From contig BDDD01006757.1 of assembly GCA_001972305.1 (NCBI GenBank), positions 22,040-86,039 on the forward strand: a stretch of 64,000 nucleotides of DNA, written 5' to 3'. The first letter of the stretch is position 1, and the number at the start of each line of letters is the position of its first letter. Under the pieces are notes generated by a model that saw nothing but the letters and a program-made list of their open reading frames with translations, was not told the origin of the DNA and did not search any database. Made by a program: the position numbers and the translations under genes. The DNA comes from Cephalotus follicularis (lineage: Eukaryota > Streptophyta > Magnoliopsida > Oxalidales > Cephalotaceae). Shown here piece after piece: positions 10,921-36,357 of the stretch.

Positions 10921-12650
10921 AGAAGATGTTCCATCGTATCAAAAAAGGATGGAGAAAATATCTTCTCCATTTTACAAATTGTTTGCACAATTTTACTCTA
11001 GAGCAAGTCCATCTTCGCAGCACTGTTCGATGTTGAGCATAAATTCCGAAAAAAAATCACTGACCTCTGTCAATCCGTCAATGATATTTCTTGGCAGGAA
11101 CTCAGAAAATGCAATCAGAAGAAGCCTCTGCATGAAGACATGGCAATCATGGCTCTTCAATCCTAAAACCTTTCACTCTAAAACATTCACACACTGAGAT
11201 ATGTTTGAGGCGTATCCATCCAGAAACCTAATCTTTGTCATGCATTCACAAACTTGTCTGACCTGTTCACTGTTTAGTGAATATTTTGCTGGTGGCAATA
11301 TGAACCGCCCATCCACCTCTTCTGCATGCAGTTCAGGTCTTATTCTCAACTCTTTCAGATCAAGTCGAGTTTGTACATGGTCCTTAGATTTTCCCTTCAC
11401 ATTCATGACTATGTTGAATATATTTTCAAACACATTCTTCTCGATGTGCATGACGTCCAACTTGTGTCTGACTAGTACTTTACTCCAATAAGGAAGTTCG
11501 AAAAAAATACTTCGCTTAGTCCAATTGTGTACTCTCCCAAACCCAAGAATCTTACTAGTTGGTACACTTTTTCAAAACACAACTTCATTCAACTCAGGGA
11601 GTTGATCCTCTACCTCTTCCCCTGATAACCTCTCCACACCCACCTTGGTCACCCGTCGACCCTTCAAGAATTTTTTATTGTCTCTTCTAAACTGGTGTCT
11701 GTGGGCAACAACTGACGATGACAGTCAAACCATGAACATTTCTGAAAATGCTTCAATCTAAAACCCTTAGTCCGACCCATGCAGTTGGGGCATGCCAAAT
11801 GACCATGAGTACTCCAGCCTGACAGTTTTCCATAGGCAAGAAAGTCACTAATCGTCCACATTAAAGCTTCCCTCATCTAAAAGTTCTTCTTGTGCGATGC
11901 ATCATTGGTTTCAACTCCAGTTTCCCACAACATCTTCAACTCGTCAACAAGTGGACGCAGAAACACATCAATATCTTTCCCTGGGATTTTTGGTCCAGGT
12001 ATAATCAAGGACAAGAACATGAATGGCTTCGTCATACACAACCAAGGGAAAAAATTGTATGGGAAAACAAAAACAGGCTAGCAAGAGTAAACACAACTAC
12101 TAACCCCACAAGGACAAAACCCATCCTTTGCTATTCCTATTCTAACATTGCCAACCTCTATAGCAAAAGATGGAAAAGTAATAGAAAAGTGCTTTCAAGC
12201 TTCCCCGTCAACCGGGTGTACCATTCCCACTTCGTCACCATCGTTATCCTTCCTCTTCTTACTACGCCACATCATATCAGCAGATGTTATGTATGATTGA
12301 AACAATCTCTGAAGTCTTGGTGCCACTGAAAAGTGACGCAAAACCTTGTAAGGTACATGTTTCTTTCTCTTTCCGCCACCGCTAGGTTTGAATCTATGAT
12401 GGTTACATGTTGGACTCTCTGTAGCACACTTGTGCCAATCCCTGTAATACAACATACAATCATTGACACATGCATCTATCTTTTTGTAGCCTAATCCCAA
12501 TGTCTTCATAATTTGTTTTAGCTTGTAATAAGACTCCTGCAACTTCTCATCCATAGGCATTCCACTCTTAACGATCTGAAGAATTTCCTCGACCCCTTTG
12601 TTAGGAATCTCATACTTGGACTTGACATTCATGAGTCGCGTCATCATAGA
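10921..12650 (-). pseudogene. CACTA-1 TNP2-type transposase remnant
   Basis: Four TNP2 family blocks are readable on the minus strand in the right order: LGLGYKKIDACVNDCMLYYR with KVLRHFSVAPRLQRLF (12195-12647), ALMWTISDFLAYGKLSGWST plus a Cys-pair segment and FDCHRQLLP (11664-11876), DVMHIEKNVFENI with the following RLDLK and LPPAKYSL blocks (11173-11460), and a MQRLLLIAF-like block near 10921-11150 that stops at the gypsy-2 LTR. These belong to the Transposase_21 (TNP2) family that cuts CACTA ends. The blocks are separated by frame changes and stops, and the C terminus is lost to the LTR insertion. Confidence 0.88.
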
Positions 12651-12844
12651 CAGCTTGGTGTGTTTTTTACAGCCATTCCATAATGGTTCATCCGCATCCT
12701 TAAGCAGGTCATAGAAATTCTTTGCATTGGGATTCAGAATTCATCGGCCGTCTCGTCATGTTCACGAGTATCAAACTCGAACCCCCAGCATCCATTACGA
12801 GATCAACAAAAGGATTGCTCGAACTCGAGGGGTCTGGCTGCTCT

Positions 12845-12956
12845 ACTGCAGCCCGACGACGTTCCCTCATTTCCCCATGTTGATCCTACAACGTGTAATT
12901 ACTGCAGCCCGACGACGTTCCCTCATTTCACCATGTTGATCTGACAACGTGTAATG
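12845..12956. repeat. 56-bp tandem duplication inside CACTA-1
   Basis: The block beginning ACTGCAGCCCGACGACG at 12845 is repeated at 12901 (period 56), ending in GACAACGTGTAAT and CTACAACGTGTAAT versions. It lies just downstream of the TAD-coding segment on the minus strand and is a local slippage-type duplication. Confidence 0.85.
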
Positions 12957-13175
12957 GAGGGTGAAACCATTCTTCAACAAATGTAACTGCACTTCAGATC
13001 GAATTCCAAATGCCCTTAACTTGCAACGTTTGTAAGGACACTTTATCGTACTATTACAGACAAACTCTTCATTTGAGAATGAAAAATCTAGAAAACCGAG
13101 CACACCCCTGTTAAATTCCTCCGTTAGTAACACCCGGACAACCCGCCTACTCATCCAACTCTTATCTACAGACAT
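12867..13175 (-). pseudogene. CACTA-1 transposase-associated domain (TAD)
   Basis: The minus-strand product begins MSVDKSWMSRR and continues with GVLGFLDFSFSN, a Cys pair in IKCPYKRC, then EVQLHLLKNGF and HYTLSDQHGE. This is the family pattern of the N-terminal transposase-associated domain found upstream of TNP2 in plant CACTA proteins. The start Met fits the family start. It is separated from TNP2 by a frame change and the 56-bp duplication. Confidence 0.85.
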
Positions 13176-13975
13176 TTTTTCTACAAGTAGGGTAGAAGAT
13201 TGTTTGATTCAAGTATTCTTTTCTCAAAATGCATTGACAGACGTGTATCTCACCACCTAACTCTAAAAGGTATGGCCCTATTCCATTTCTGACTACGTAC
13301 CTCCACTAATATCGTTATCCCACGTGCATAGTTCACTCCGAGAAAATTTCGGCAGCATCTCCCCACGGTTCCTCAAATACACGAATTAAACTGAATTAAT
13401 CGGTTTAATTATGCATCCGAGGAACATGTTTAAGGAGTGTAACCAAAACTTTCTTGAAGAAAACTATGTACACAAAATAACAATATATCCTACAGTGGAC
13501 GTACGTATGCGAGAACTGTCCGAACTGGTCAATTCATGATTCACTCCTATTGAACGAATCATGAACGGGAATCTAAGGTTTCTCTCAACTTTAATCATAA
13601 TAGGTAACTAAACTCTACAATAAATTTAAACATGATAAACCATCAAAGTTTCATTTTTATATAAAACCTACAAGATACTTCAGAATCATGAATTCTACAA
13701 CGACAACGGACATTTTACTTCACTCAGAATTTATACCGCACATCAAATCATTCGTACAATAAGTAATTTGTTTCTATACAATTCAAAAATCTAATCAATT
13801 ATTACCCGCATACACATTAAGTATATTACAAACAGTAAGTAATGAAATCAGAAACAAGTGAAATAATACAATATCAAATAACTTGTTTATATATATACAC
13901 ACTTTGTTTTTTATTTGAGATTTTTGACTCACTCAACTTGGAGCTCAAGGGACGACCAATCCAATTGAAGAATTA
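13176..13975. other. CACTA-1 5' region, no recognisable gene
   Basis: AT-rich sequence between the transposase-associated domain and the LTR-like debris. I see no coding similarity, RNA gene or clear repeat. Probably the transposon's upstream noncoding region. Confidence 0.5.
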
Positions 13976-14990: not shown

Positions 14991-15006
14991 TATTTTTCTT
15001 GTAGTG
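14991..15006 (-). other. CACTA-1 terminal inverted repeat
   Basis: Minus-strand CACTACAAGAAAAATA, the canonical plant CACTA end. The next three bases outside (GGT) would be the 3-bp target duplication; the partner end lies left of the window, so this cannot be confirmed. Confidence 0.85.
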
Positions 15007-20903: not shown

Positions 20904-21066
20904 TTGGTATCACAAAAGATATTGTCAAAATTAATAGTGTTTAAAAAAATATCAATGATTGTTGACGCAGAAAATTATTCCTCAACAGTTCTCCGGCGTG
21001 GGGAGGGTTTATTTGTTTGGGAAAAGACGACGATGCTCCGAAGAGTGTTCTACGGTGGTCTACTTC
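20904..21066 (+). pseudogene. Possible host exon interrupted by CACTA-2 (left part)
   Basis: The CACTA-2 target lies in sequence that stays open in two plus-strand frames across the empty site. A possible acceptor (GACGCAG) precedes it near 20972. Past the insertion the frame continues into about 26803-26960, in one frame with a hydrophobic stretch (YFLISLVFLAYTV). By eye, most differences between the two copies of the right flank are silent in that frame. I do not recognise a family, so coding status is only suggested. Confidence 0.3.
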
Positions 21067-21310
21067 CACTACTAGAAAAAGGAAATTTCCCGACCGCCCT
21101 TTTTGCCGACCCCTATGCCGACCGCTTTACCGACCGCTCTAGCGGTCGGTAAATGCCCTTAACTGAAGTCGTGTTGATTTCCATCGGCAACCGCAGTATT
21201 TTGGAATTACCAATATTATTATTTATTTCTATTTAGCAACCGCCGTTTTTGTTTTGCCGACCGCTATGGCGATCGGTAATTGTCTTATTTCGAAATAAAG
21301 CAGATTGCTT
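21067..21310 (+). repeat. CACTA-2 left end: terminal and subterminal repeats
   Basis: After the terminal repeat come CCGACCGC units in both orientations, including the palindrome-like CCGACCGCTCTAGCGGTCGG at about 21127. Such arrays are typical transposase-binding regions of CACTA elements; binding here is inference. The following stretch (21330-22300) has two 28-bp direct repeats beginning GATCGCTCCAAGCTC (about 21420-21475) and otherwise unrecognised sequence, possibly 5' sequence of the captured gene. Confidence 0.8.
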
Positions 21311-22302
21311 TTGATCAGTTCCTTTTACACGGTTCCCTTTTTTTTTATAACTTCATCGCTCTCTGTCTTCATCTTCATCGCTTTTGGTCATTCAAATCTG
21401 TCTGTTGTCAACTCCAAACCGATCGCTCCAAGCTCGAAGCTCCAAATCGATCGCTCCAAGCTCAAAGCTCCAAATCGACCAACTTTTTCTGTCTATATCC
21501 TCTCGATCACTCCAAGCTGCAAATCGATGAACGGTTGCTTCCAGATCCAATTTCAGGTACCGTTTTCACTCAATTTTTTTATGCCTTTCCCACATGAGAC
21601 TATAGTAGCTGTTGGTTCTTGTCTGATCGGATCTGGCACCGTCTTGTGTCCGATCTGCTTTGCCCATTTTGAGGATTTAATTGTAGCTGTTGGCATTTTG
21701 ATGATTTAATTGTAATGTTTCAGTTTGACTATTGATTTTTCATCACTTTTGATTAAACTGATGTTGTTGTTTGCTTTGCCCATAATCATGGTCTTGATGT
21801 GTTCTGTTGCTGCATTTATGCCTCTAATGTATTACTTTATGTCAACGTATTGGTTCTCATTTAGACCAGGCACATTCAAGTTGAAAATAAATTGCTTCTT
21901 TGTGGTAATTGTTGTTACTTTTTTTTGGGGGTCAATGGCATAATCAATGTTTGAACTATTCTAATTGATCAATTTAGTGCATCAACTATTTATATTTCTG
22001 AATTAAGGAAACACACAAGATTTGGGAGTTTGTCACCTCATACGATCGTGATCATGGTTAAATGATATGCTACCGCCTCAACTGCTTAGGCTCTTGGTCC
22101 TATTTTTATGTTAAACATCCATATATTAGCCCTGGTTTATGAATATTAATGAATGGATTCCATGCGATGCCCGTAGAAAGTGTTTTTTTGTGTGTAATTA
22201 AAGCCACTCCATACCAGGATTAACTTCGAACAAGTGCTGAGCATAAATGGATTCCATGTGATTGCTTCGCGTGTGCATTGATTTTTGTTCCTCTTTTCAC
22301 AG

Positions 22303-25300
22303 GTTGGTGATGATGTTACCGTGCTTGATGCCTCTGGAAAATTTGTCATGCCAGGTTTGTTGTTCCTTCCTTATTGCTTCCTTTTGACCTTTATGTGTTC
22401 TAATAGATTGATCATGTTTTTTTAACTGTCGTAAGATCCTTTATACATGAGGAATTGATCCTCATACACACCTTGCTATGGATTGTATGGATTTTTTGAG
22501 TACTCAGACCGTTGATGACTTCTTCAGTGGTCAGGCTGCGGCACTGGCAGGTGGAACAACTATGCACATTGACTTTGTTATACCGGTTAATGGTAATCTA
22601 ATGGCAGGTTTTCAAGCCTATAAAAACAAAGCTAAGGTTTCTTGCATGGATTATGGTTTCCATATGGTTATTATCAAATGGGATGACGTTGTTTCAAGGG
22701 ATATGGAAATTATGGTTAAGGAGTAACCACTGTTGTTTCATCTTACCCTATTGGATGAAGGCGAACAGCTTCTTCTAGATATTTCTTGATTATTGAACTA
22801 AACAGAGTCATTTTTTGTTTCCCAACTTGCAGGTATCAACTCTTTCAAATTTTTCATGGCATACAAGGGGGCACTAATGGTCAGTTATGAGCATTGATGC
22901 GTTGGAAGAAGTAACAAAAGCTCGAAAATCAGGTTTTATAGAAATGTTCAACATTTTGCAATTCTGTTTATTGAGCATTAATGATACGGTAGTAGTATTA
23001 ATTTACTGTCTTAGAATACTGGTGTAGACAATATGATCTATACACATATAATGATGCCTTTTATTTTTTACATGTATAAAGGAAACTATTAGCACTTTCA
23101 CTAACTAATACAAAGACTAGGAGAATAGATGATAGCTTAATCAGTAATAGAGTTAATTGAACAATTATATGAGAGAAAACTCTAACAAGGGCCTCCACAA
23201 CTTTAATGTGTAAACATTTAGTTCATTTAAAGTCGCAAGAGACAGCCAGAGTTTTGATGATCCTACACCTTTCCTTTATTATTCTTTTATGAATGCCGAT
23301 GAGTAATTGGGTTCAGTTCCAAATTAACTATGGTCAATAATTGTATAACAAACTAAGGATGGGTTTTAGGTTTGAGGTTTCTAATATATTGGTCTATATG
23401 CATTGTTTGCTATTATTATCAATCCATTCTTGCTTTCTTTAATAAACATATTACCTACTCGCCCCAAAAGGTGATAGCATTCCTTGTTTGATGCTGACCT
23501 TGATTTAGCTGCATGGATGCTCCAAAGTGCATTCATTAGGTTCTTATGAGTTTTAATTTCTGATTTTAGCTTCAAGTCTAGTAGAAGAGACGAAAGGAAC
23601 AAAGGCAATAATGAATTTGTTGATTCTGTCTTATCTATCTTTTGATGAAAGACGATTGAGACAAGAAAGCTATAAAAAACACAAACACACACATACACAC
23701 AAAAACAAACGCACGCATGCTTGCAAACAAAACTACACACAATCACACACACACACAAATACGACAAATGAAATGACCAACACTCCACAACATGTGTTTC
23801 CACTTTATAGAAATCAATGTATTAGATTTGTGCATAATATTGAAGTTCTTTGTCTTTGTTTTTTAAATTCTAAAAAGATATTTAACTAAATACTCTGGTT
23901 TTTTTTTTCTATATTTTTTTGGATAGATAGGATCGATGGTTGGGTTGGGTTGGGTTACACATCCAAGGATAGCGCTCCGAAATCCCCTATACCCCTTCCC
24001 CCAAATCCGTCATGGAAACTGACAATGTAGGTATTGAGGAGAGGATGCATCTGGTTTGGGATACAATGGTGGTAAGCCACTATGGAGTTTTAGCTCAATC
24101 CTTAAAATTGAAAGTCTGGATTAGTATTATTGTTCTTCTGTAAACACTTTGCCTTTTTAAGACTCAAATTTTTAATATCTTTCAGGAATCTGGCCAAATA
24201 TCCGCCACTGACTATGTCCGGTTAACAGGCATTGAATGGTATGCTCTTCTGGGATTCTTTCAAGTAAATTATGATCATCATGCAAATATTACAAAGTATC
24301 TGAAGTTGCAAAGAGAAATGTTAGGAATTTTTTTTACCTGTTTGAACACTGGTATTTTATTTCTTATTTTACAGTGCTAGGATCTTCAACATATATCCAA
24401 GAAAAGGAGCTATACTTGCTAGGTGTAACACCCCGCGCCCACAGGGCAGACACGTGACATTACTCTCAATTTAATACACAAAATAATGGTCGGGACTAGC
24501 AATATAAAAATACGAAAAAACTTAAAACTTTGCAATACATATCAGTTGCGGAAGAAACAGTACAAATCCATCCATACAGTATAAAGCAAAGCTTTTACAA
24601 TACAGTCTTTTACACTACATCATCAATCCTTCAATACAGTATTACAATACAATACATAACAAATCAATCCTTTTGCTACGATGTCTCAATCAGCTTTGCG
24701 ATGCCCAAACGGTCATACAATCGAGTCGAGTCTTCAATCTTTCTGTCCGCTGCTACCTGCTGCCCTACCTATGCCGCACATAGAAGGTACAATAAAACCC
24801 CACCACGAGGATGGGGTTAGCCACACTGGCTAAGCAGAAACCCCATGCAGCATGTATGCATGTACAATGTGCAATATCGGTGACAATCTATACAATATCA
24901 ATGTGCAGTGTACAATATCAATGCATGACATAACAAATGTACATGTACAATTGGCGATCATACTATCTGTATGACAGTGGCCCATAACAGAGCATACGGA
25001 TAGGATCTATAATAATCAATCAATGGCAGACACTCAATGGTGGTGTATGAAACACCAAATCAATCAATCAATATCCTATAGAGCATGCGACCGAGTCAAT
25101 ACAATGTCAATCGGTTAGCGGTGATCAATCCCACAGAAGGTAGTCCTTCAAAAAGGGTGGGAGATCTATCTACGGTTTCCAGATTGATCAGGTCTGGAAC
25201 TCTAGATCTTCCAGCCTACTGGGTCTGATGCAGATATAATCATACTCAACCCAAACTCAAGCTTCAAAATAAGTTCAAGCAGTCACCACTCCAGAATAGA

Positions 25301-25957
25301 TACAAACATCTATGAGGGTTGGAGAGGGAAGGTAATTTTTAAATATTTTATTCTCTTCATTGACTTTTGAGGGAGGTGCAATTTTGTATGAGAAGGGTGA
25401 CATGGGGCCATATTTCTAAAATTGTTGCTCTATGAATCCTAGTATATGAAGTTACTGCTTCATTTGAAAGTTTATAAGAACTGCTGTGTCGAGAACAAAA
25501 GATATATATTCTTACTAAGGTTAAATAAGATTTTTACGCGGATTTTCGAATGGATCATTTGAAGACATACTCTTGGTTTGACCCTTGAGTTTGTCATGAC
25601 CCTATGCAATTGAAACATTCCTTGCTAAGCTTTGTTCAATGTAATCAAGGTCTTTCTAATAGATGCCCGTGCCTTGGACTCTCTCCCCCCCCTGTATGTG
25701 TGTGTGACACATAACATCCTCAGTCTTCTCATGCTTTGTTTTGTTTCATAGTCTTTGCTATGTTTTCTCAGGGAAAAGTTGAAGTGACAATTGCTGGTGG
25801 AAGAGTTGTCTGGGAAAATGATGAACTGAAGGTTGTTCCTGGTTCTGGAAAGTACATAGAGATGCCTCCCTTCAGTTATCTTTTTAATGGGATTGAGAAA
25901 GCAGATGCTCGGCATCTATCCTCGCTCAGAGCTCCAGTGAAGCGTTCCAATTCTTGA
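22303..25957 (+). pseudogene. PYD2: Captured dihydropyrimidinase gene fragment, copy 1
   Basis: Exon-like blocks with intron borders encode dihydropyrimidinase: VGDDVTVLDASGKFVMP (22303-22354); IDPHTH to SRDMEIMVKE (22452-22723), including the His-x-His metal-ligand motif; GINSFKFFMAYKGALMV fused to MSIDALEEVTKARKSG (22833-22932); EERMHLVWDTMV (to 24071); ESGQISATDYVR (24186-24238); ARIFNIYPRKGAILA (24375-24420), resuming at 25219-25331; and the C-terminal exon (25772-25957). The family enzyme hydrolyses dihydrouracil in pyrimidine catabolism. The first exons are absent, the central catalytic part is missing at the fusion in exon 3 (which also shifts frame), and a later exon is split by a 795-bp LTR fragment. 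It cannot encode an active enzyme. The family identification is firm. Confidence 0.88.
24424..25218 (-). repeat. gypsy-1-family LTR fragment inserted in a PYD2 exon
   Basis: Begins TGTAACACCCCGCG exactly like the gypsy-1 LTR at 3782 and follows it closely, with blocks such as ATGGTCGGGACTA, TGCTGCCCTACCTATGCCGC and AGATCTATCTAC, up to about position 4570 of that LTR. It is absent from the second PYD2 copy (30805), where the exon is continuous. The bases CTAGG and CTGGG border it. A partial LTR, inserted after the CACTA-2 segment was duplicated. Confidence 0.88.
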
Positions 25958-26334
25958 TGGTACCAGTAACACTTGTCTAAATAAAGTTGGAAGGAAAATT
26001 ATATACAATGCTTGTGAAGTTTGTTTGATTTTTCTTGATATTTAATAAACACAGATGAGTAAGCTCTTAATCACTGTAAAAAAAACATGTAAATTCTATC
26101 ATTAAGTAGAATGAATATGTTTTCCATTTTGGCGAAGTTATGATTTATTTTGCTTGCTATTCTGATCTTAAAAGAATAAACGGAAGTCATGAGTCAACAT
26201 AGTAAAAAATGATTCTAATATTTGTTGAAGAATACAGAAACTGTTTAGTTCTCTAGTGATGAACATGTCTCATCTACGGGTAAAAGCCATAAATCTATAA
26301 TTATGTCTAATTACGTAATGATGATCAGAGATTT

Positions 26335-26799
26335 AGTGAGTGGTCGGCACAACAATTCCCGACCACTACAACAATTCCCGACCGCTATAGCGGTCGGCAA
26401 ACAACTCATAAAATTAATCAAATTTCAAAAATTTATTTTATTTCCCGACCGCTTTTCAAACATTACCGACTGCCGGAACGGTCGGCAAACCTTTATAAAT
26501 TTTATCAAATTTCAAAATTTATTTTATTTCCCGACCACTTACAACATTCCCAGACTGCCAGGGCGGTCGGTAAAACCCTTATAAAATTAATTTTTTCTGA
26601 CACCGATCAACAGCAACCGCATCCCTTACCGACCGTTTTAGCGGTCGGTAAATGATAAAGGCGGTCGAGGAAACGGTCGGGCTATAATCGGTGACCCAAT
26701 TATAAGCGGCCGTCATTGCGGTCAGCGCGACGGTCGGGGAAACCTTTCGCCGACCGCTTTTAAGGTTTTCGGTCGGGAAATGGTCTTTTTCTAGTAGTG
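26335..26799 (+). repeat. CACTA-2 right end: subterminal and terminal repeats
   Basis: At least eight CCGACCGC or GCGGTCGG units, several as short palindromes (CCGACCGCTATAGCGGTCGG), spaced through 26340-26780 and ending in the 15-bp terminal repeat. This mirrors the left end. Confidence 0.88.
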
Positions 26800-27250
26800 T
26801 TCCTGATTTCTCTGGTCTTCCTTGCATACACAGTGAACAAATTGTCGAAATCCCAGGAGTTTTACTCCCGAAGACCCTTGTGTTTGACAGAGAAGAAAAG
26901 TATATATATGTGAGAGAAACTGATCAACCCTGGTATATTCTGTGTATGGAGTATTTATAGTCTTCTTCTTGGTCGTAACTGCTTGCATCATGGTGAAGTT
27001 ATTGGTCCCTAGAAAATTGTCTGATTTACGGCGGTGTTTCCTTATCTCCTCCTTTTCCTTATCTCATTATTTTTGTCATTATGACCATGATCTGATAGAG
27101 AATGAATTATCTCCTAGTTTATCTCCACAAATGAAAGAGTTCTTGAACGGTTGAATCAGTGCCTCAGTAATATAAGAATTTTTTTAATATCAATAATATT
27201 TTAATAATACATATACTTGTGATATTACATCATTTATAATTAATAATATT
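26800..27250 (+). other. CACTA-2 right flank, possible continuation of interrupted host sequence
   Basis: Starts with the TTC target duplication. Open plus-strand frames run through it, including one near 26942-27154 with a hydrophobic stretch (FIVFFLVVTACIMVKLL). The same flank recurs at 32400-32844. Family not recognised; it may be part of an old gene or chance open sequence. Confidence 0.35.
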
Positions 27251-27255
27251 AGACT

Positions 27256-27479
27256 TGTTATAAACTTAAGAGGTTAACTCACAAAAGAAGATTATACTAT
27301 AAAAAGATTCAGAGAGAAATTAAGAGAGAAAGTAAGAGAGAATAAAAGTTTTTCTTATTATGAATTCCTTAACTTCTTCTTAACAATACATTCATATTTA
27401 TAGGAGTTTAGGGGTTGTTGGAATAGTGTTTGATTGTTGGAATAGTAATTCACTATTCATGTTTGACAATTTTACAATA
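27256..27479 (-). repeat. copia-A 3' LTR (224 bp)
   Basis: Starts TGTTATAAACTTAAGAGG and ends TTTTACAATA on the plus strand. Next to it on the inner side lies CTCCCCATTG, a GGGGAG polypurine tract on the minus strand, as expected before a 3' LTR. Matches the LTR at 36115-36357 and the partial one at 32845-33046. Confidence 0.85.
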
Positions 27480-27712
27480 CTCCCCATTGAATTTCTATTC
27501 CATATTACTATGACTGCCTCGTTAAAACTTTATTAGAAAAAACCCATTGGGATAAAAACCTTTGCGAAGGAAAAAGAGTACAGTCTCCCCCTGAAACAAA
27601 ACTTCACAAGTTCTTGAACTGTATTAATGAAGATCTTTAATCTGACGCATCCCAATATCATGTCTGAGCTTCTTGAATGTAGTACCCGGTAATGCCTTCG
27701 TAAATAAATCCG

Positions 27713-28200
27713 CTAAATTGTCACTTGATCGGATTTGTTGTACATCAATATCACCATTTTTCTGACAGGTCTTGTGCAGTTTGCAAGATACAATAGTGCT
27801 CCAATTGCGCTAAGATAAGGAACTTCAGGTCCAATGATTTCTTCTCCTTCTTCTTGAGGATGAAATGGATCTTTCTTGGCATCAGTAGATCGAACTACCA
27901 TTGGAGTGCTCAGAGGATAAGCTTTGTCCATGTTGAATCGACTAAGAACCTTTTCAGTGTATGTGGATTGATGGATGAAGATCCCAGATGATATGTGCCT
28001 CACCTGTATACCAAGACAAAACTTTATTTTTCCAAGATCTTTCATTTCAAACTAACCTTTTAAATAGGTTGCAGTCTTTGTAAGTTCTTCAAAAGTACCT
28101 ACAAGATTTAAGTCATCCACATATACTGCAATAATAACACATCCATCGTTAGATTTTTTTGATAAAAATACATGGACATATTTGATCATTTGTATATCCT
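27713..28200 (-). pseudogene. copia-A reverse transcriptase C-terminal part
   Basis: The minus-strand translation has the copia RT catalytic box (AVYVDDLNLVG, about 28110-28145) followed by MKDLGKIKFCLGIQV and the PYLSAIGALLYLAN block that leads into RNase H. Typical plant copia. Fossil. Confidence 0.85.
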
Positions 28201-28209
28201 TCTTTGATT

Positions 28210-28536
28210 AAATATTCACTTAGTCGATTGTGCCCAAGCATTCAATGCTTTTGGCAGTACAACAGCTTTCAAGTGCTCAAATCTATCATTTAGGTTTTGC
28301 CACAATTTAAGTGGATTTTTAACAGTTAGATACTCATATTTCAGGCCATCATCAATATAATGCCTTAAGAAAATCAATGCAATGGCGCGTTCCTCATTTG
28401 TTGCTGCAGTTTCTTCCTCAATTGTGTGCCTTAATTTCTTAGCACTCAAATGCAGTTTCACATCAAGTACCCAAGATAGATATTTCTTTCCAGAAATATC
28501 AAGGGCAATGAATTTCCGATTCTCAATGTTTTCCAT
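28210..28536 (-). pseudogene. copia-A gag N-terminal part, extra copy
   Basis: The product begins MENIENRKFIALDISGKKYL and closely matches the gag start at 35546-35785. It is a UBN2-type copia Gag N terminus (WVLDVKLHLSAKKLRHTI). Its presence next to the RT part shows the element's rearrangement. Fossil. Confidence 0.85.
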
Positions 28537-28603
28537 TTTTACACTGAATCAAAATATAAAATAAATGTCATTTAAACATAATAAATAAAAAAAGTTTACT
28601 GTA

Positions 28604-29153: not shown

Positions 29154-29210
29154 TAGATATTTCTTGATTATTGAACTAAACAGAGTCATTTTTTGTTTCC
29201 CAACTTGCAG

Positions 29211-31543
29211 GTATCAACTCTTTCAAATTTTTCATGGCATACAAGGGGGCACTAATGGTCAGTTATGAGCATTGATGCGTTGGAAGAAGTAACAAAAGCT
29301 CAAAAATCAAGTTTTATAGAAATGTTCAACATTTCACAATTCTGTTTATTGAGCATTAATGATACGATAGTAGTATTAATTTACTGTCTTAGAATACTGG
29401 TGTAGACAATATGATCTATACACATATAATGATGCCTTTTATTTTTTACATGTATAAAGGAAACTATTAGCACTTTCACTAACTAATACAAAGACTAGGA
29501 GAATAGATGATAGCTTAATCAGTAATAGAGTTAATTGAACAATTATATGAGAGAAAACTCTAACAAGGGCCTCCACAACTTTAATGTGTAAACATTTAGT
29601 TCATTTAAAGTCGCAAGAGACAGCCAGAGTTTTGATGATCCTACACCTTTCCTTTATTATTCTTTTATGAATGCCGATGAGTAATTGGGTTCAATTCCAA
29701 ATTAAATATGGTCAATAATTGTATAACAAACTAAGGATGGGTTTTAGGTTTGAGGTTTCTAATATATTGGTCTATATGCATTGTTTGCTATTATTATCAA
29801 TCCATTCTTGCTTTCTTTAATAAACATATTACCTACACGCCCCAAAAGGTGATAGCATTCCATGTTTGATGCTGACCTTGATTTAGCTGCATGGATGCTC
29901 CAAAGTGCATTCATTAGGTTCTTATGAGTTTTAATTTCTGATTTTAGCTTCAAGTCTAGTAGAAGAGACGAAAGGAACAAAGGCAATAATGAATTTGTTG
30001 ATTCTGTCTAATCTATCTTTTGATGAAAGACGATTGAGACAAGAAAGCTATAAAAAACACAAACACACACATACACACAAAAACAAACGCACGCATGCTT
30101 GCAAACAAAACTACACACAATCACACACACACACACACACAAATACGACAAATGAAATGACCAACACTCCGCAACATGTGTTTCCACTTTATAGAAATCA
30201 ATGTATTAGATTTGTGCATAATATTGAAGTTCTTTGTCTTTGTTTTTTAAATTCTAAAAAGATATTTAACTAAATACTCTGGTTTTTTTTTTCTATATTT
30301 TTTTGGATAGATAGGATCGATGGTTGGGTTGGGTTGGGTTACACATCCAAGGATAGCGCTCCGAAATCCCCTATACCCCTTCCCCCAAATCCGTCATGGA
30401 AACTGACAATGTAGGTATTGAGGAGAGGATGCATCTGGTTTAGGATACAATGGTGGTAAGCCACTATGGAGTTTTGGCTCAATCCTTAAAATTGAACGTC
30501 TGAATTAGTATTATTGTTCTTCTGTAAACACTTTGCCTTTTTAAGACTCAAATTTTTAATATCTTTCAGGAATCTGGCCAAATATTCGCCATTGACTATG
30601 TCCGGTTAACAGGCATTGAATGGTATGCTCTTCTGGGATTCTTTCAAGTAAATTATGATCATCATGCAAATATTACAATGTATCTGAAGTTGCAAAGAGA
30701 AATGTTAGGAATTTTTTTTTACCTGTTTGAACACTGGTATTTTATTTCTAATTTTACAGTGCTAGGATCTTCAACATATATCCAAGAAAAGGAGCTATAC
30801 TTGCTGGGTCTGATGCAGATATAATCATACTCAACCCAAACTCAAGCTTCGAAATAAGTTCAAGCAGCCACCACTCCAGAATATATACAAACATCTATGA
30901 GGGTTGGAGAGGGAAGGTAATTTTTAAATATTTTATTCTCTCCATTGACTTTTGAGGGATGTGCAATTTTGTATGAGAAGGGTGACCTGGGGCCATATTT
31001 CTAAAATTTTTGCTCTATCAATCCTAGTATATGAAGTTACTGCTTCATTTGAAAGTTTATAAGAACTAATGTGTCGAGAACAAAAGATATATATTCTTAC
31101 TAAGGTTAAATAAGATTTTTACGCAGATTTTCGAATGGATCATTTGAAGACATACTCTTGGTTTGACCCTTGAGTTTGTCATGACCCTATGCAATTGAAA
31201 CATTCCTTGCTAAGCTTTGTTCAATGTAATCAAGGTCTTTCTAATAGATGCTCGTGCCTTGGACTCTCTCTCTCCCCCCCTGTGTGTGTATGACACATAA
31301 CATCCGCAGTCTTCTCATGCTTTGTTTTGTTTCATAGTCTTTGCTATGTTTTCTCAGGGAAAAGTTGAAGTGACAATTGCTGGTGGAAGAGTTGTCTGGG
31401 AAAATGATGAACTGAAGGTTGTTCCTGGTTCTGGGAAGTACATAGAGATGCCTCCCTTCAGTTATCTTTTTAATGGGATTGAGAAAGCAGATGCTCGGCA
31501 TCTATCCTCGCTCAGAGCTCCAGTGAAGCGTTGCAATTCTTGA
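29211..31543 (+). pseudogene. PYD2: Captured dihydropyrimidinase gene fragment, copy 2
   Basis: The same exon blocks as copy 1 from the fused exon onward: GINSFKFFMAYKGALMV/MSIDALEEVTKA (29211-29310), EERMHLV (to 30455), ESGQIFAIDYVR-like (30570-30622), ARIFNIYPRKGAILAGSDAD and on to the end of that exon uninterrupted (30760-30916), and the C-terminal exon (31358-31543) ending at the same stop. It shares the central fusion with copy 1, so that defect predates duplication. It lacks the metal-binding His-x-His exon. One stop is visible in the EERMHLV exon (TGG in copy 1 is TAG here). Pseudogene. Confidence 0.87.
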
Positions 31544-31924
31544 TGGTACCAGTAACACTTGTCTAAATAAAGTTGGAAGGAAAATTATATATAATGCTTA
31601 TGAAGTTTGTTTGATTTGTCTTTATATTTAATAAGCACAGATGAGTAAGATCTTAATCACTGTAAAAAAAATATGTAAATGCTATCATTAAGTAGAATGA
31701 ATATGTTTTCCATTTTAGCGAAGTTATGATTTATTTTGCTTGCTATTCCGATCTTAAAAGAATAAACGCAATTCATGAGTCAACATAGTAAAAAATGATT
31801 CTTATATTTGTTGAAGAATACAGGAACTGCTTAGTTCTCTAGTGATGAACATGTCTCATCAACGGGTAAAAGCCAGAAATCTATAATTATGTCTAATTAC
31901 ATAATGATGATCAGAGATTTAGTG

Positions 31925-32399
31925 AGTGGTCGGCACAACAATTCCCGACCGCTACAACAATCCCCGACCGCTATAGCGGTAGGCAAACTACTCATAAAAT
32001 TAATTAAATTTCAAAAATTTATTTTATTTCCTGACCGCTTTTCAAACATTACCGACCGCCGGAATGGTCGGCAAACCTTTATAAATTTTATCAAATTTCA
32101 AAATTTATTTTATTTTCCGACCGCTTACAACATTCCCAGACCGCCAGGGCGGTCCGTAAAACCCTTATAAGATTAATTTTTTCTGACACCAATCAACAGC
32201 AACCGTATCCCTTACCGACCGTTTTAGCGGTCGGTAAATGATAAAGGCAGTCGGGGAAACGGTCTGGCTATAATCGGTGACCCAATTATAAGCGGCCGTC
32301 ATTGCGGTCAGCGCGGCGGTCGGGGAAACCTTTCTCCGACCGCTTTTAAGGTTTTCCCGACCGCTTTGGTGGTCGGAAAATGGTCTTTTTCTAGTAGTG
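31925..32399 (+). repeat. CACTA-2 copy: right subterminal repeats and terminus
   Basis: The same CCGACCGC/GCGGTCGG array as 26335-26799, with point differences and one extra unit near the end (CCGACCGCTTTGGTGGTCGG at about 32357). Confidence 0.85.
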
Positions 32400-32844
32400 T
32401 TCCTGATTTCTCTGGTCTTCCCTGCATACACAGTGAACAAATTATCGAAATCCCAAGAGTTTTACTCTCGAAGACCCTTGTGTTTGACAGAGAAGAAGAG
32501 TATATATATGTGAGAGAAACTGATCAACCATGGTATATTCTGTGTATGGAGTATTTATAGTCTTCTTCTTGGTCGTAACTGCTTGCATCATGGTGAAGTT
32601 ATTGGTCCCTAGAAAATTGTCTGATTTACGGCGGCGTTTCCTTATCTCATTATTTTTGTCATTATGGCCATGATCTGGTAGATAATGAATTATCTCCTAG
32701 TTTATCTCCACAAATGAAAGAGTTCTTGAACGGTTGAACACGTGTCAATGCCTCAGTAATATAAGAATTTTTTTAATATCAATAATATTTTAATAATTCA
32801 TATATTTGTGATATTACATCATTTATAGTTAATAATATTAGACT
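32400..32844 (+). other. Duplicate of the CACTA-2 right flank
   Basis: Matches 26800-27255, including the TTC at the transposon edge and AGACT beside the LTR. The short indels between copies include an ACACGTGT stretch present only here (about 32738-32745) and a CTCCTTTTCCTTAT stretch only in copy 1. Confidence 0.85.
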
Positions 32845-33046
32845 TGTTATAAACTTAAGAGGTTAACTCACAAAAGAAGATTATACTATAAAAAGATTCA
32901 GAGAGAAATTAAGAGAGAAAGTAAGAGAGAATAAGAGTTTTTCTTATTATGAATTCCTTAACTTCTTCTTAACAATACATTCCTATTTATAGGAGTTTAG
33001 AGGTTGTTGGAATAGTGTTTGGTTGTTAGAATAGTAATTCACTATT
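32845..33046 (-). repeat. copia-A third, partial LTR
   Basis: Starts TGTTATAAACTTAAGAGG after AGACT and follows the 27256 LTR to CACTATT, where it passes directly into copia coding-region sequence. It marks the right edge of the duplicated CACTA-2/flank/LTR segment. Confidence 0.85.
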
Positions 33047-33128
33047 AACTTTAATATATCGATAGAGCTTTCACTAGTTTTAGATATATCAATTCTTGCT
33101 GGAGCATTCACAGCTGGTATATAAGATT

Positions 33129-34625
33129 TTACCACTTTTTGAGGATCATTAAATGCATCTGACATTTGATTAGCAATATTCTGCAAATTAATGATCCTTT
33201 GAACTTGTAGTCCACATTCATTTGTACGTGGATCAAAACTATGTAATCTTGATGCTTTTCATGAATTTTCATTTCATTTTTCAATAAAATCTTGTCTCCC
33301 CCTAACACTGGGAAAACCAATTCATCAAAGTGACAGTCTGCATAATGTGCAGTAAACATGTCACCTGTTAATGGCTCAAGATACCTTATAATTGATGGAG
33401 AATCAAATCCCACATAAACGCCAAGTCTGCGTTGTGGTCCCATTTTACTCCACTGAGTAGGTGAAATAGGACATATACTGTACATTCAAACACTCTTAAG
33501 TGGGATATGTTTGGTTCTTGACCAAGAACAAGTTGCAATGGAGAATATTTATGATATGCAGTCGGTCTTATACGTATAAGAGCCGCAGCATGCAATATCG
33601 CATGTCCCAAAACTAAAATGGGTAACTTTGATCTCATCAATAAAGGACGAGCAATCTGAAGTCTCTTTATAAGAGATTCAGCTAACCCATTTTGGGTGTG
33701 TACGTGAGGAACATGCTGTTCAATGGCAATTCCTATTGCCATGCAATATTCATCAAATGCTTTGGAACAAAATTCAGCAGCATTATCTAGCCGAATAGAC
33801 TTTATAGGATGATATCTGAGCCAATAGTCTCACAAATGCAACATTGCGAGTTGAAAGTAAGCATACATACGACCATCTTGTCGATGCATCTATTAAGACC
33901 ATAAAATACCGAAATGGTCCAGATGGTGGATTAATCGGTCCACAAATATCTCCTTGAATTCTCTTTAAGAATTTTGGAGATTCTACAACCACTTTTATTG
34001 TAGATGGTCTTATAATGAGTTTTTTTTGCGAACAAGCAACATAATGGTTCTCGTTATTCAATAGCATTTTCTGCTTTTTAAGTGGATGGCCATGTGAACT
34101 TTCAATTATTCGACGCATCATTGTCACACCTGGGTGACCTAGCCGTTCATGCCAAATCATGAACCCTTTTGAGTCTATGACTTTTGAATCCACAACATTA
34201 TGAGATTCAATTGCTCTAATTTTCATAACGTATAGTCCAGAAGAAAGTCCAGGGAGTTTCTCCAGTATTTTCTTTTGGCCGGAAGCATTACCAGTGATAT
34301 AAAGATATTCTTTGCCATTTTCATTTGTGATTTCATTATGATAACCATTTCTGCGAATATCTTTGAAACTAAGCAAGTTTCTTCTAAACTTTGTCGAATA
34401 TAAAGCATTTATGATGCGTATTTGTGTTCCATTTGATAACATAAAACTGGCCATCCCAGAACCTTCAACTAGGTCTGATGTACCAGAAATTGTTCCAACA
34501 TTAGCCTTTGCTATTGTCAAATGTGAAAAATATTTTTCATTCTGGAGTATTGTGTGTGTTGTTGCACTGTCAGCTATGCATATATCTCCAATATCCATTG
34601 TATGATGATCTATAGATAAAAACAC
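33129..34625 (-). pseudogene. copia-A protease and integrase
   Basis: Minus strand: a protease-like active-site region (CIADSATTHTIL) near the right end, then the GAG-pre-integrase His/Cys region (WHERLGHPGVTMMRR), integrase core start (GDICGPI and MVLIDASTRWSYV) and core end (VPHVHTQNGLAESLIKRLQ), then the post-core MYSICPIS/GVYVGFDSPSII block. The protease-integrase order is the copia hallmark. Broken fossil. Confidence 0.87.
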
Positions 34626-34717
34626 ACATGTTATTGATAAATATAACTATGTTACATTTATTATTTCAAAAGCACTTTATTCAAAAGTAATAAACATTAA
34701 AACAATGGCATACAATA

Positions 34718-35785
34718 TCAACCGAGATGGAAGTTTTCGTCAGCAATCACTTGGTCCATTTTCTCATTTGGATCAACTAATAAATCATGAATGTCCAAAT
34801 GAGTTGTACCCATTGAAACAAAGTCTGATTGTGTAATTTCCAGAGAATTACAATGACCGATAAAATTTGTTTCAATTTGTTTGCCTTTCTCTTTTAGAGA
34901 CGCTTGGTACAAATCTACCCAATGCTTCACTGTGCGACAAGCACGGTACCAATGACAGTCCATACCACATCGATTGCAATTTCCCTTTTTACTTTGGGCT
35001 TGTCCAGCATTACTGGATTGTCCAGGATTACGCCACTTTTGACGTTGTTCTGTATCAGGATTTTGCCATTTCATGTTATTATTATTGCGTGGCCCCAATA
35101 AATTTTGATTTCTTCCATTGCCACGTCCTCTTCCACGTCCTCGTCCACGCCCTCTTCCTCGTCCTCTAAAATGAGATGGAGTTGCATTTACCTCTGGTAA
35201 AGAGGCTGAACCAGTCGGACGACTGTGATGATTTTGCAGGAGTAATTCATTATTTTGCTCCGCAATAAGAAGAGATTCAATCAGTTCACGATATTTCTTG
35301 AACCTGTGCAACCTATACTGTTGTTGCAGTAACACATTGGATGCATGAAATGTTCGATATGTTTTCTCCAGCAATATATCATCGGTGATAACTTCACCAC
35401 ACATCTTTAATTGTGATATAATTTTGAACAACGTGGAATTATATTCCGAAACTGTTTTAAAGTCTTGAAATCGTAGCTGTGCCCAATCATTCAATGCTTT
35501 TGGCAGTACAACATCTTTCAAGTGCTCAAATCTATCATTTAGGTTTTACCACAATTCAAGTGGATTTTCAACAGTTAGATACTCATATTTCAGGCCATCA
35601 TCAATATGATGCCTTAAGAAAATCAATGCAGTGGCGCGTTCCTCATTTGTTGCTGCATTTTCTTCCTCAATTGTGTGCCTTAATTTCTTAGCACTCAAAT
35701 GCAGTTTCACATCAAGTACCCAAGATAGATAATTCTTTCCAGAAATATCAAGGGCAATGAATTTCCGATTCTCAATATTTGCCAT
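34718..35785 (-). pseudogene. copia-A gag
   Basis: UBN2-type copia Gag: N terminus IENRKFIALDISGKNYLSW (35546-35785), middle with PKALNDWAQLRFQDFKTVSE, an Arg/Gly-rich run (about 35105-35170 in plus coordinates), and a C-x2-C-x4-H-x4-C zinc knuckle (CNRCGMDCHWYRAC, about 34935-34980). Packaging and particle protein. Fossil. Confidence 0.87.
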
Positions 35786-35851
35786 TTTTACACTGAATCA
35801 AAATATAAAATAAATGTCATTTAAACATAATAAATAAATAAAATTTACTGT

Positions 35852-36019
35852 AATAAAAAAAAATTTGGGACCTCATTGGTGCAATCATAGACCACGCTCA
35901 CTTTCCCCCGACATAATCAGGGCATGAGACCACTTGAGCATAATGGGGCTTGCCGAGACTCGAACGCCGGACCTCATGGATGAACGAGCGGCTTCCTACC
36001 ACTAAGTCACCACCTCAAG
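35852..36019 (-). mobile_element. tRNA-derived SINE in the copia leader (copy 2)
   Basis: The same unit as 28604-28770 with a few base differences. Box B-like GGCGTTCGAGTCTCG and box A-like GACTTAGTGGTAGG are clear on the minus strand. It lies between the LTR/PBS zone and gag, so it would be in the element's RNA leader. Confidence 0.7.
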
Positions 36020-36114
36020 TGATGATAATCGTTTCCAATATTATATATATATATTTGAAAGACTAATTCAAATTATTTCAAATCTCAGTTGGGTAGAGTC
36101 TTGTACTGATAACG

Positions 36115-36357
36115 TGTTATAAACTTAAGAGGTTAAATCACAAAAGAAGATTATACTATAAAAAGATTCAGAGAGAAATTAAGAGAGAAAGGAAGAGAGA
36201 ATAAAAGTTTTTCTTATTATGAATTCCTTAACTTCTTCTTAACAATACATTCTTATTTATAACAATTTAGGGGTTGTTGGAATAATGTTTGGTTGTTGGA
36301 ATAGTATTTTGTTGTTAGAATAGTAATTCACTATTCATGTTTGATAATTTTACGATA
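36115..36357 (-). repeat. copia-A 5' LTR (243 bp)
   Basis: TGTTATAAACTTAAGAGG to TTTTACGATA, followed by AGACT matching 27251-27255. Differs from the 27256 LTR by about 10 base changes and an extra TTGTTGGAATAGT-like unit. On its inner side GTACTGATAACG is PBS-like on the minus strand (GTTATCAGTAC), a variant of the iMet pattern. Confidence 0.83.

What the first reader, a model, noticed from the sequence alone, without database searches (positions are those of the whole stretch)
21067..26799. Pack-CACTA: a transposon that has captured a multi-exon PYD2 fragment
Perfect 15-bp CACTA termini, a TTC target duplication and rich subterminal repeats enclose at least seven exon blocks and the introns of dihydropyrimidinase, and no transposase. 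Introns are kept, so capture was at DNA level. The fused exon (GINSFKFF.. joined to MSIDALEE..) shows the central catalytic exons were lost before or soon after capture.
Basis: partly seen in the sequence, partly recalled or inferred. Interest (0 to 1): 0.75.

Follow-up and report, generated by a model that had tools for sequence, protein, structure and literature searches.

The report
Jumping gene carrying stolen PYD2 exons
A plant CACTA transposon here carries a broken piece of the host enzyme gene PYD2, copied as DNA from an intact gene elsewhere in the same genome, spread to many places and then whittled down by shared deletions; it is a well-resolved example of a known kind of gene-carrying transposon.

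Summary
The finding holds. Window 21067-26799 is a complete non-autonomous CACTA element: perfect 15-bp ends, TTC target duplication, subterminal repeats, PYD2 exons with introns, no transposase found. The donor was identified: an intact 13-exon PYD2 gene on contig C239 (537 aa, TIGR02033 628 bits). The captured block runs from its intron 2 to 385 bp past the stop and aligns through the introns. The same right-hand cargo junction occurs at 19 places on 17 contigs: one capture, then amplification. Between them the copies read keep every captured exon (E3-E13), so the central exons were lost after capture, by two separate deletions whose junctions recur at other loci. A 10-bp deletion removing the exon-4 splice donor is in 10 of 10 copies covering it, and private substitutions look neutral: no sign that the cargo is kept as a gene. 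C940, with the same left end and a 574-codon transposase frame, is a plausible autonomous partner. The left junction holds a second captured fragment and a 17-bp templated repeat, favouring copy-type capture by template switching. Known kind (Pack-CACTA); interest moderate. No RNA data were available.

The parts
21064..21066 (.). left copy of the TTC target site duplication
   Evidence: read directly
21067..21081 (+). left terminal inverted repeat CACTACTAGAAAAAG
   Evidence: exact match
21082..22004 (+). the CACTA family's own left end: subterminal CCGACCG repeats and leader, shared with other elements
   Evidence: 21285-22004 or part of it at 36 places on 34 contigs that have no PYD2 match, among the 40 best of 462 candidates scored; same end in C940
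22029..22249 (+). second captured genomic fragment, about 220 bp, 90% like C1172:452155-452376, with sharp borders
22246..22262 (+). 17-bp repeat of 22152-22168 at the left cargo junction (templated insertion); exact in C2969, one mismatch here
   Evidence: (family D17)
22259..26343 (+). captured PYD2 block, colinear with C239:775248-781694 (intron 2 to 385 bp beyond the stop), minus internal deletions
22303..22354 (+). PYD2 exon 3 (complete)
22449..22723 (+). PYD2 exon 4 with a 9-bp insertion; its splice donor is removed by a 10-bp deletion, leaving an in-frame TAA
22833..22932 (+). fused exon: first 51 bp of exon 5 joined to last 49 bp of exon 6
   Evidence: same junction in C532, C652, C8787 and in the second window copy
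24012..24017 (.). junction of the deletion that removed exons 7-9 (parent positions P4342 to P6050)
   Evidence: same site in C2969, C532, C1372, C5095
24031..24071 (+). PYD2 exon 10
24186..24238 (+). PYD2 exon 11
24375..25331 (+). PYD2 exon 12, interrupted by the insertion below
24424..25219 (.). about 800-bp insertion of a high-copy repeat (TGTAACACCCC...), absent from the parent and from the second window copy
25772..25957 (+). PYD2 exon 13 with stop codon
26344..26784 (+). CACTA right subterminal region; the cargo junction at 26343/26344 recurs at other loci
26785..26799 (-). right terminal inverted repeat
26800..26802 (.). right copy of the TTC target site duplication
29154..32399 (+). 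second, left-truncated copy, from a local duplication of 22776-27457 (element plus flank) as 29154-33046

Best explanation
The feature is a Pack-CACTA element. SHOWN: its cargo is a 6.45-kb stretch of the intact PYD2 gene on C239 (intron 2 to 385 bp past the stop, introns included), minus deletions, set between the family's own left and right ends. The same right junction at 17 contigs means one capture followed by amplification. Descendants lost parts of the cargo by internal deletions, some in copies that then moved again: P4342-6050, then P1949-3093 (both in the window copy), then a left-side deletion in C532, C652 and C8787. The window copy lost a further ~148 bp, then its 3' part plus flank was duplicated locally; an ~800-bp insertion in exon 12 is in the first copy only. 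Copies that cover exon 4 share a broken splice donor and the cargo evolves neutrally. INFERRED: capture was copy-type, by template switching during repair of a gap inside the element (about 0.6 against 0.3 for two flanking insertions); movement used a transposase in trans, e.g. from a C940-type element; transcription from the element's left end would read PYD2 in sense, but no expression evidence exists.
For: Ends, TSD, repeats. Donor gene: 13 exons, all 12 introns GT-AG, 537 aa, TIGR02033 628.2 bits against cut-off 393.25; best PDB relatives 2ftw and 2vr2 are dihydropyrimidinases. Block limits and introns. One capture: right junction at 19 places on 17 contigs with up to 2 mismatches (8 exact), reversed control 1; left junction at 3 loci, and three more keep the left filler up to a later deletion. 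Mobility: four loci with both ends and equal triplets: TTC (window), TAA (C532), ACT (C1372), TAA (C2163). Deletions after capture. Neutrality: private changes 105 of 8866 exon sites and 294 of 26561 non-exon sites (p=0.56); 22 of 104 private coding changes synonymous against 25.4% expected (p=0.37). Direction: the parent has a 186-bp insertion with 8-bp duplication CTTTTGAG that the 8 copies covering the site lack; the parent's 9.2 kb has no terminal repeat within 2 mismatches. Partner: C940 has the terminal repeat, the left end and an open Transposase_21 frame of 574 codons about 3.5 kb in, same strand. Template switch: second fragment and 17-bp repeat.
Against: The substitution tree does not group the window copies with C532, C652 and C8787, with which they share a deletion; it puts them with C5095 (81) and C2969 (70), and several nodes are weak (12 to 66), so recombination or gene conversion between copies is likely. 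Left ends vary more than the cargo (C3585 against window 78% over 463 bp, but 94-97% in the cargo), so ends may have been exchanged. C2163, C5095 and C8787 carry PYD2 but are not among the 19 right junctions (C2163 matches only to P7743, the C8787 contig ends early, and C5095 matches only to P6424 in the stretch read). Six loci (C3988, C1820, C28, C4538, C2893, C6133) were not read; C6133 rests on one 2-mismatch pattern match only. The right end of C940 was not located. No transcripts, small RNAs or other accessions were available.
Confidence: 0.9

Rival explanations
1. Same element, but capture by two neighbouring CACTA insertions flanking PYD2 that lost their facing ends and then moved as one (the tandem-insertion model for Pack-CACTA).
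For: The structure left end / host DNA / right end fits; the model is described in PMC13317346 (passages) and PMC8903248 (passages).
Against: The left junction holds an unrelated 220-bp fragment with sharp borders plus a 17-bp templated repeat, more typical of template switching (own knowledge). The 9.2 kb read at the parent have no CACTA terminal repeat within 2 mismatches.
Confidence: 0.3
2. The cargo is a functional chimeric gene, kept by selection and driven by the element's left end.
For: The cargo lies in the same sense as the transposase of the related C940 element. Pairwise copy-parent dN/dS of 0.35-1.02 (0.39 for the window copy) looks like constraint at first sight.
Against: Private changes show no constraint (omega 1.05 unweighted, 1.27 with transition bias); exon 4 has lost its splice donor in 10 of 10 copies covering it; 6 of 15 copies carry stop codons made by substitutions; none of the copies read shows the whole set of exons, though several were read in part only.
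Confidence: 0.03
3. The repeated PYD2 sequence acts in trans: transcripts of about 20 copies feed small RNAs that dampen PYD2.
For: Many copies, 94-98% like the parent in the exons.
Against: No RNA data at all; the two window copies are direct, not inverted, repeats.
Confidence: 0.08
4. PYD2 fragments spread by ordinary segmental duplication, and CACTA ends are incidental.
For: One local duplication does exist, at 29154-33046.
Against: On 17 contigs the PYD2 block meets the CACTA right end at the same junction, and the four elements with both ends read have their own 3-bp duplications.
Confidence: 0.02

Closest known systems
Pack-CACTA elements (PMC8903248, passages read; the 2019 Arabidopsis paper PMC6379663 is cited there and but is not held)
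   Same: CACTA terminal repeats, TSD, host gene DNA, no transposase, small families of copies
   Different: Here the donor gene is intact and identified, the copies trace to one capture, 11 exons of one gene were taken, and their stepwise loss can be ordered
Tgm-Express1 of soybean (PMC1947982, passages read)
   Same: 5.7-kb CACTA element carrying gene fragments with introns
   Different: Tgm-Express1 holds fragments of five unrelated genes and its exons appear in transcripts of the host gene; here one main gene plus a 220-bp fragment, and no transcript data
CACTA-captured genes of bread wheat chromosome 3B (PMC4290129, passages read)
   Same: CACTA capture of genes, some present in several copies, with apparent exchange between families
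   Different: That study infers purifying selection on most captured genes from dN/dS to a homologue; here copy-parent ratios are partly in that range but changes private to the copies are neutral
Grapevine transduplications (PMC2528002, passages read)
   Same: CACTA and other DNA transposons that carry and amplify host sequence, exons and introns in some
   Different: No ordering of cargo loss in the passages read

Membership tests
CACTA (En/Spm) superfamily | terminal inverted repeats beginning CACTA | tested here: met
   15 of 15 bp at both ends
CACTA (En/Spm) superfamily | 3-bp target site duplication | tested here: met
   TTC/TTC; also at C532, C1372 and C2163
CACTA (En/Spm) superfamily | subterminal repeats | tested here: met
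CACTA (En/Spm) superfamily | related element with CACTA transposase in the genome | tested here: met
   C940: same terminal repeat and left end plus open Transposase_21 frame; its right end was not located
Pack-CACTA | carries host gene DNA with an identifiable donor | tested here: met
   C239 PYD2
Pack-CACTA | no transposase of its own | tested here: met
   8 frames of at least 100 codons, no transposase match in Pfam at E 0.01
Pack-CACTA | mobile: found at several sites with their own TSDs | tested here: met
   four loci with both ends; 19 right junctions
Processed retrogene carried by a transposon | introns absent | tested here: not met
   introns retained
Functional dihydropyrimidinase gene | complete exons and splice sites | tested here: not met
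   window copy: exons 1, 2, 7, 8, 9 absent, 5 and 6 partial, exon 4 donor deleted
trans-silencing locus | small RNAs matching PYD2 | not testable with these tools
   no RNA data

The most novel reading that the evidence does not exclude
A single captured, intron-bearing PYD2 block, read in sense from the element's own left end and spread to about 20 loci, is a dispersed trans-acting source of small RNAs that tunes pyrimidine catabolism by targeting the one intact PYD2 gene.
Probability: 0.08. Interest if true: 0.65.

Novelty: new member of a known kind. Interest (0 to 1): 0.4.

Why it matters
Here the intact donor, one capture junction, the derived copies and the order of deletions all lie in one genome, so capture, amplification and decay can be told apart; in my judgement that is rarer than the element itself. 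It also shows that pairwise dN/dS between a captured copy and its donor (0.35-1.02 here) can look like selection while changes private to the copies are neutral, a caution for calling captured genes functional on that ratio.

Tried and rejected
Segmental duplication as the general cause, a retrocopy, and a functional gene were rejected for the reasons given above. A search of the papers for the terminal sequence gave none; CACTA with dihydropyrimidinase gave one paper, in which the passages seen do not link the two; the listings of the other searches showed no report of PYD2 in a CACTA element; unlisted papers and papers outside the library were not seen. A Transposase_24 profile gave only 6 weak matches and did not help to find a partner; the C2969 peptide upstream of its cargo had no Pfam match, nor had two window frames (11173-11571, 12195-12740). 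The left regions of C2163, C204 and C321 (97% alike) were read but their origin was not traced. The species was not identified and no date is given, because a substitution rate would have to be assumed. Rows dropped: blast pieces under 84% identity or 60 bp, and contigs with under 200 projected sites, were left out of the copy comparison; sites covered by fewer than two other copies were left out of the private-change counts, and the two window copies were not counted against each other there.
Full report
WHAT WAS CLAIMED AND CHECKED. The element at 21067-26799 has perfect 15-bp CACTA ends, a TTC duplication and dense CCGACCG-type subterminal repeats. The 15-mer is a true repeat end in this genome: 440 forward and 472 reverse exact matches, against 3 and 4 for the reversed pattern. 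Eight frames of at least 100 codons inside it or across its ends gave no transposase in Pfam; two gave weak matches below the curated cut-offs (SLATT_4, DUF1163), taken as chance. The genome is 1.58 Gb in 9746 contigs; the window is C6753:22040-86039.

THE DONOR GENE. Searching the genome with the internal DNA and with the dihydropyrimidinase model TIGR02033 pointed to contig C239, which has the fullest set of matches. On the reverse strand of C239:773791-783016 (P coordinates, P1 = 783016) I read 13 exons with 12 GT-AG introns and a 537-aa open frame from P766 to P7384. The protein scores 628.2 bits on TIGR02033, cut-off 393.25; its best solved relatives, 2ftw and 2vr2, are dihydropyrimidinases. 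That 9226-bp stretch has no CACTA terminal repeat within 2 mismatches, and one within 3. The 48 matches lie on C239 and 18 further contigs, the window's included; none of the copies that I read shows the complete set of exons, but several were read only in part.

THE CAPTURE. The block shared with the elements runs from P1323 (intron 2) to P7769 (385 bp past the stop), exons and introns alike. The right junction (PYD2 to CACTA end) was found at 19 places on 17 contigs with up to 2 mismatches, reversed control 1; 8 of the 19 are exact. C6133, with 2 mismatches, has no other support in my calls; C2893, exact, has a right end but no match. PYD2-bearing C2163, C5095 and C8787 are not among the 19. 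The left junction was found at C2969, C3585 and the window; C532, C652 and C8787 keep the same left filler up to a later deletion. This is best read as one capture. The donor carries a 186-bp insertion with an 8-bp duplication and inverted ends (hAT-like, by recall) in intron 12; the 8 copies that cover the site lack it, as expected if the gene is the source and not a descendant.

AMPLIFICATION AND DECAY. Both ends with equal flanking triplets were seen at four loci: window TTC, C532 TAA, C1372 ACT and C2163 TAA, whose left repeat has two mismatches. Complete exons per contig: C2969 3-6 and 10-13; C204 5 and 7-11; C321 5, 7, 8 and 13; C2163 5 and 8-11. So exons 3-13 were all captured. Deletion junctions at the same site in different loci, with a few substitutions nearby, give an order: P4342-6050 (window, C2969, C532, C1372, C5095); P1949-3093 (window, C532, C652, C8787); then a left-side deletion (C532, C652, C8787). 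The nesting rests on C532, since C652 and C8787 do not cover the first site. C1521 and C126 share another deletion, P3062-6058. Deleted copies therefore moved again. Both window copies lack a further ~148 bp (P3622-3770) that the parent and other copies covering it have. The breakpoints have short shared letters, typical of end joining or slippage; that is inference.

NO SIGN OF FUNCTION. A 10-bp deletion takes out the exon-4 splice donor in 10 of 10 copies that cover it and leaves an in-frame TAA. Substitutions found in one copy only: 105 of 8866 exon sites and 294 of 26561 non-exon sites, p = 0.56; of 104 in whole codons, 79 change an amino acid, 3 make a stop and 22 are synonymous, against 25.4% synonymous expected with the intronic transition bias, p = 0.37. 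Pairwise copy-parent ratios were 0.35-1.02; I infer that they are low because the donor's own branch is constrained, since 10 of the 19 coding changes common to all covering copies are synonymous. Six of 15 copies have stop codons made by substitutions. Divergence from the donor is 2.2-5.8% in exons and 3.2-6.2% outside; the window copies differ by 2.0%.

HOW IT MOVED AND HOW IT WAS LOADED. The first 720 bp of the queried leader (21285-22004), or parts of it, recur at 36 places on 34 contigs that have no PYD2 match (40 best of 462 candidates scored). One of them, C940, has the terminal repeat, leader segments 93-94% identical and an open Transposase_21 frame of 574 codons on the same strand, about 3.5 kb from the repeat; its right end was not located. 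Between leader and PYD2 lies a 220-bp fragment 90% like C1172 and 85% like C616, with sharp borders against C1172, and then a 17-bp repeat of part of that fragment (exact in C2969, one mismatch here), joined to PYD2 at TGAT. This suggests template switching while a gap was copied. The alternative of two flanking insertions (PMC13317346 and PMC8903248, passages) is not excluded.

RESULTS AGAINST A SIMPLE STORY. The tree places the window copies with C5095 and C2969, not with the loci sharing the P1949-3093 deletion; several nodes are weak (12 to 66). C3585 is 78% like the window in the left terminal region but 94-97% in the cargo. Exchange of ends or gene conversion between copies is likely.

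THE WINDOW BEYOND THE ELEMENT. 22776-27457 is repeated at 29154-33046 (95-98%), flank included, so the second copy arose by local duplication, not transposition; the ~800-bp insertion in exon 12 is only in the first copy.

COMPARISON. It meets the tested features of a Pack-CACTA element. Similar cases are Tgm-Express1, wheat captured genes, grapevine transduplications and Chenopodium CACTA elements, all known to me here from passages, not whole papers. I count it as a new, unusually complete member of a known kind.

Noticed in passing
window 29154-33046: Local duplication of the element's 3' part, its right flank and a following LTR-like repeat, 95-98% identical to 22776-27457.
   Followed up: yes
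window 24424-25219: About 800-bp insertion in exon 12 beginning TGTAACACCCC, a high-copy repeat in the genome (many 92-95% matches).
   Followed up: partly
window 11173-13208 (-) and 14992-15006 (-): Frames that look like a broken CACTA transposase (by eye), one with the Transpos_assoc domain PF13963, and a terminal-like CACTACAAGAAAAAT nearby.
   Followed up: partly
window 27256-28550 and 32845-36350: LTR-like repeat TGTTATAAACTTAAG at 27256, 32845 and 36115 around minus-strand frames that look like Copia gag and pol (by eye); rearranged.
   Followed up: no
G000:C239 intron 6 (about P4787-4972): The donor intron holds a peptide that looks like an hAT transposase dimerisation region (by recall); the surrounding stretch was carried along in the C321 copy.
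   Followed up: no
L020 (C652:190769-194659), upstream of its cargo: A frame that resembles a pentatricopeptide-repeat protein (by eye) lies beside the truncated left end of this copy.
   Followed up: no
L048 (C2163), L047 (C204), L042 (C321): These three copies share a different 1.4-1.7 kb left region (97% alike) of unknown origin in place of the window's left part.
   Followed up: no
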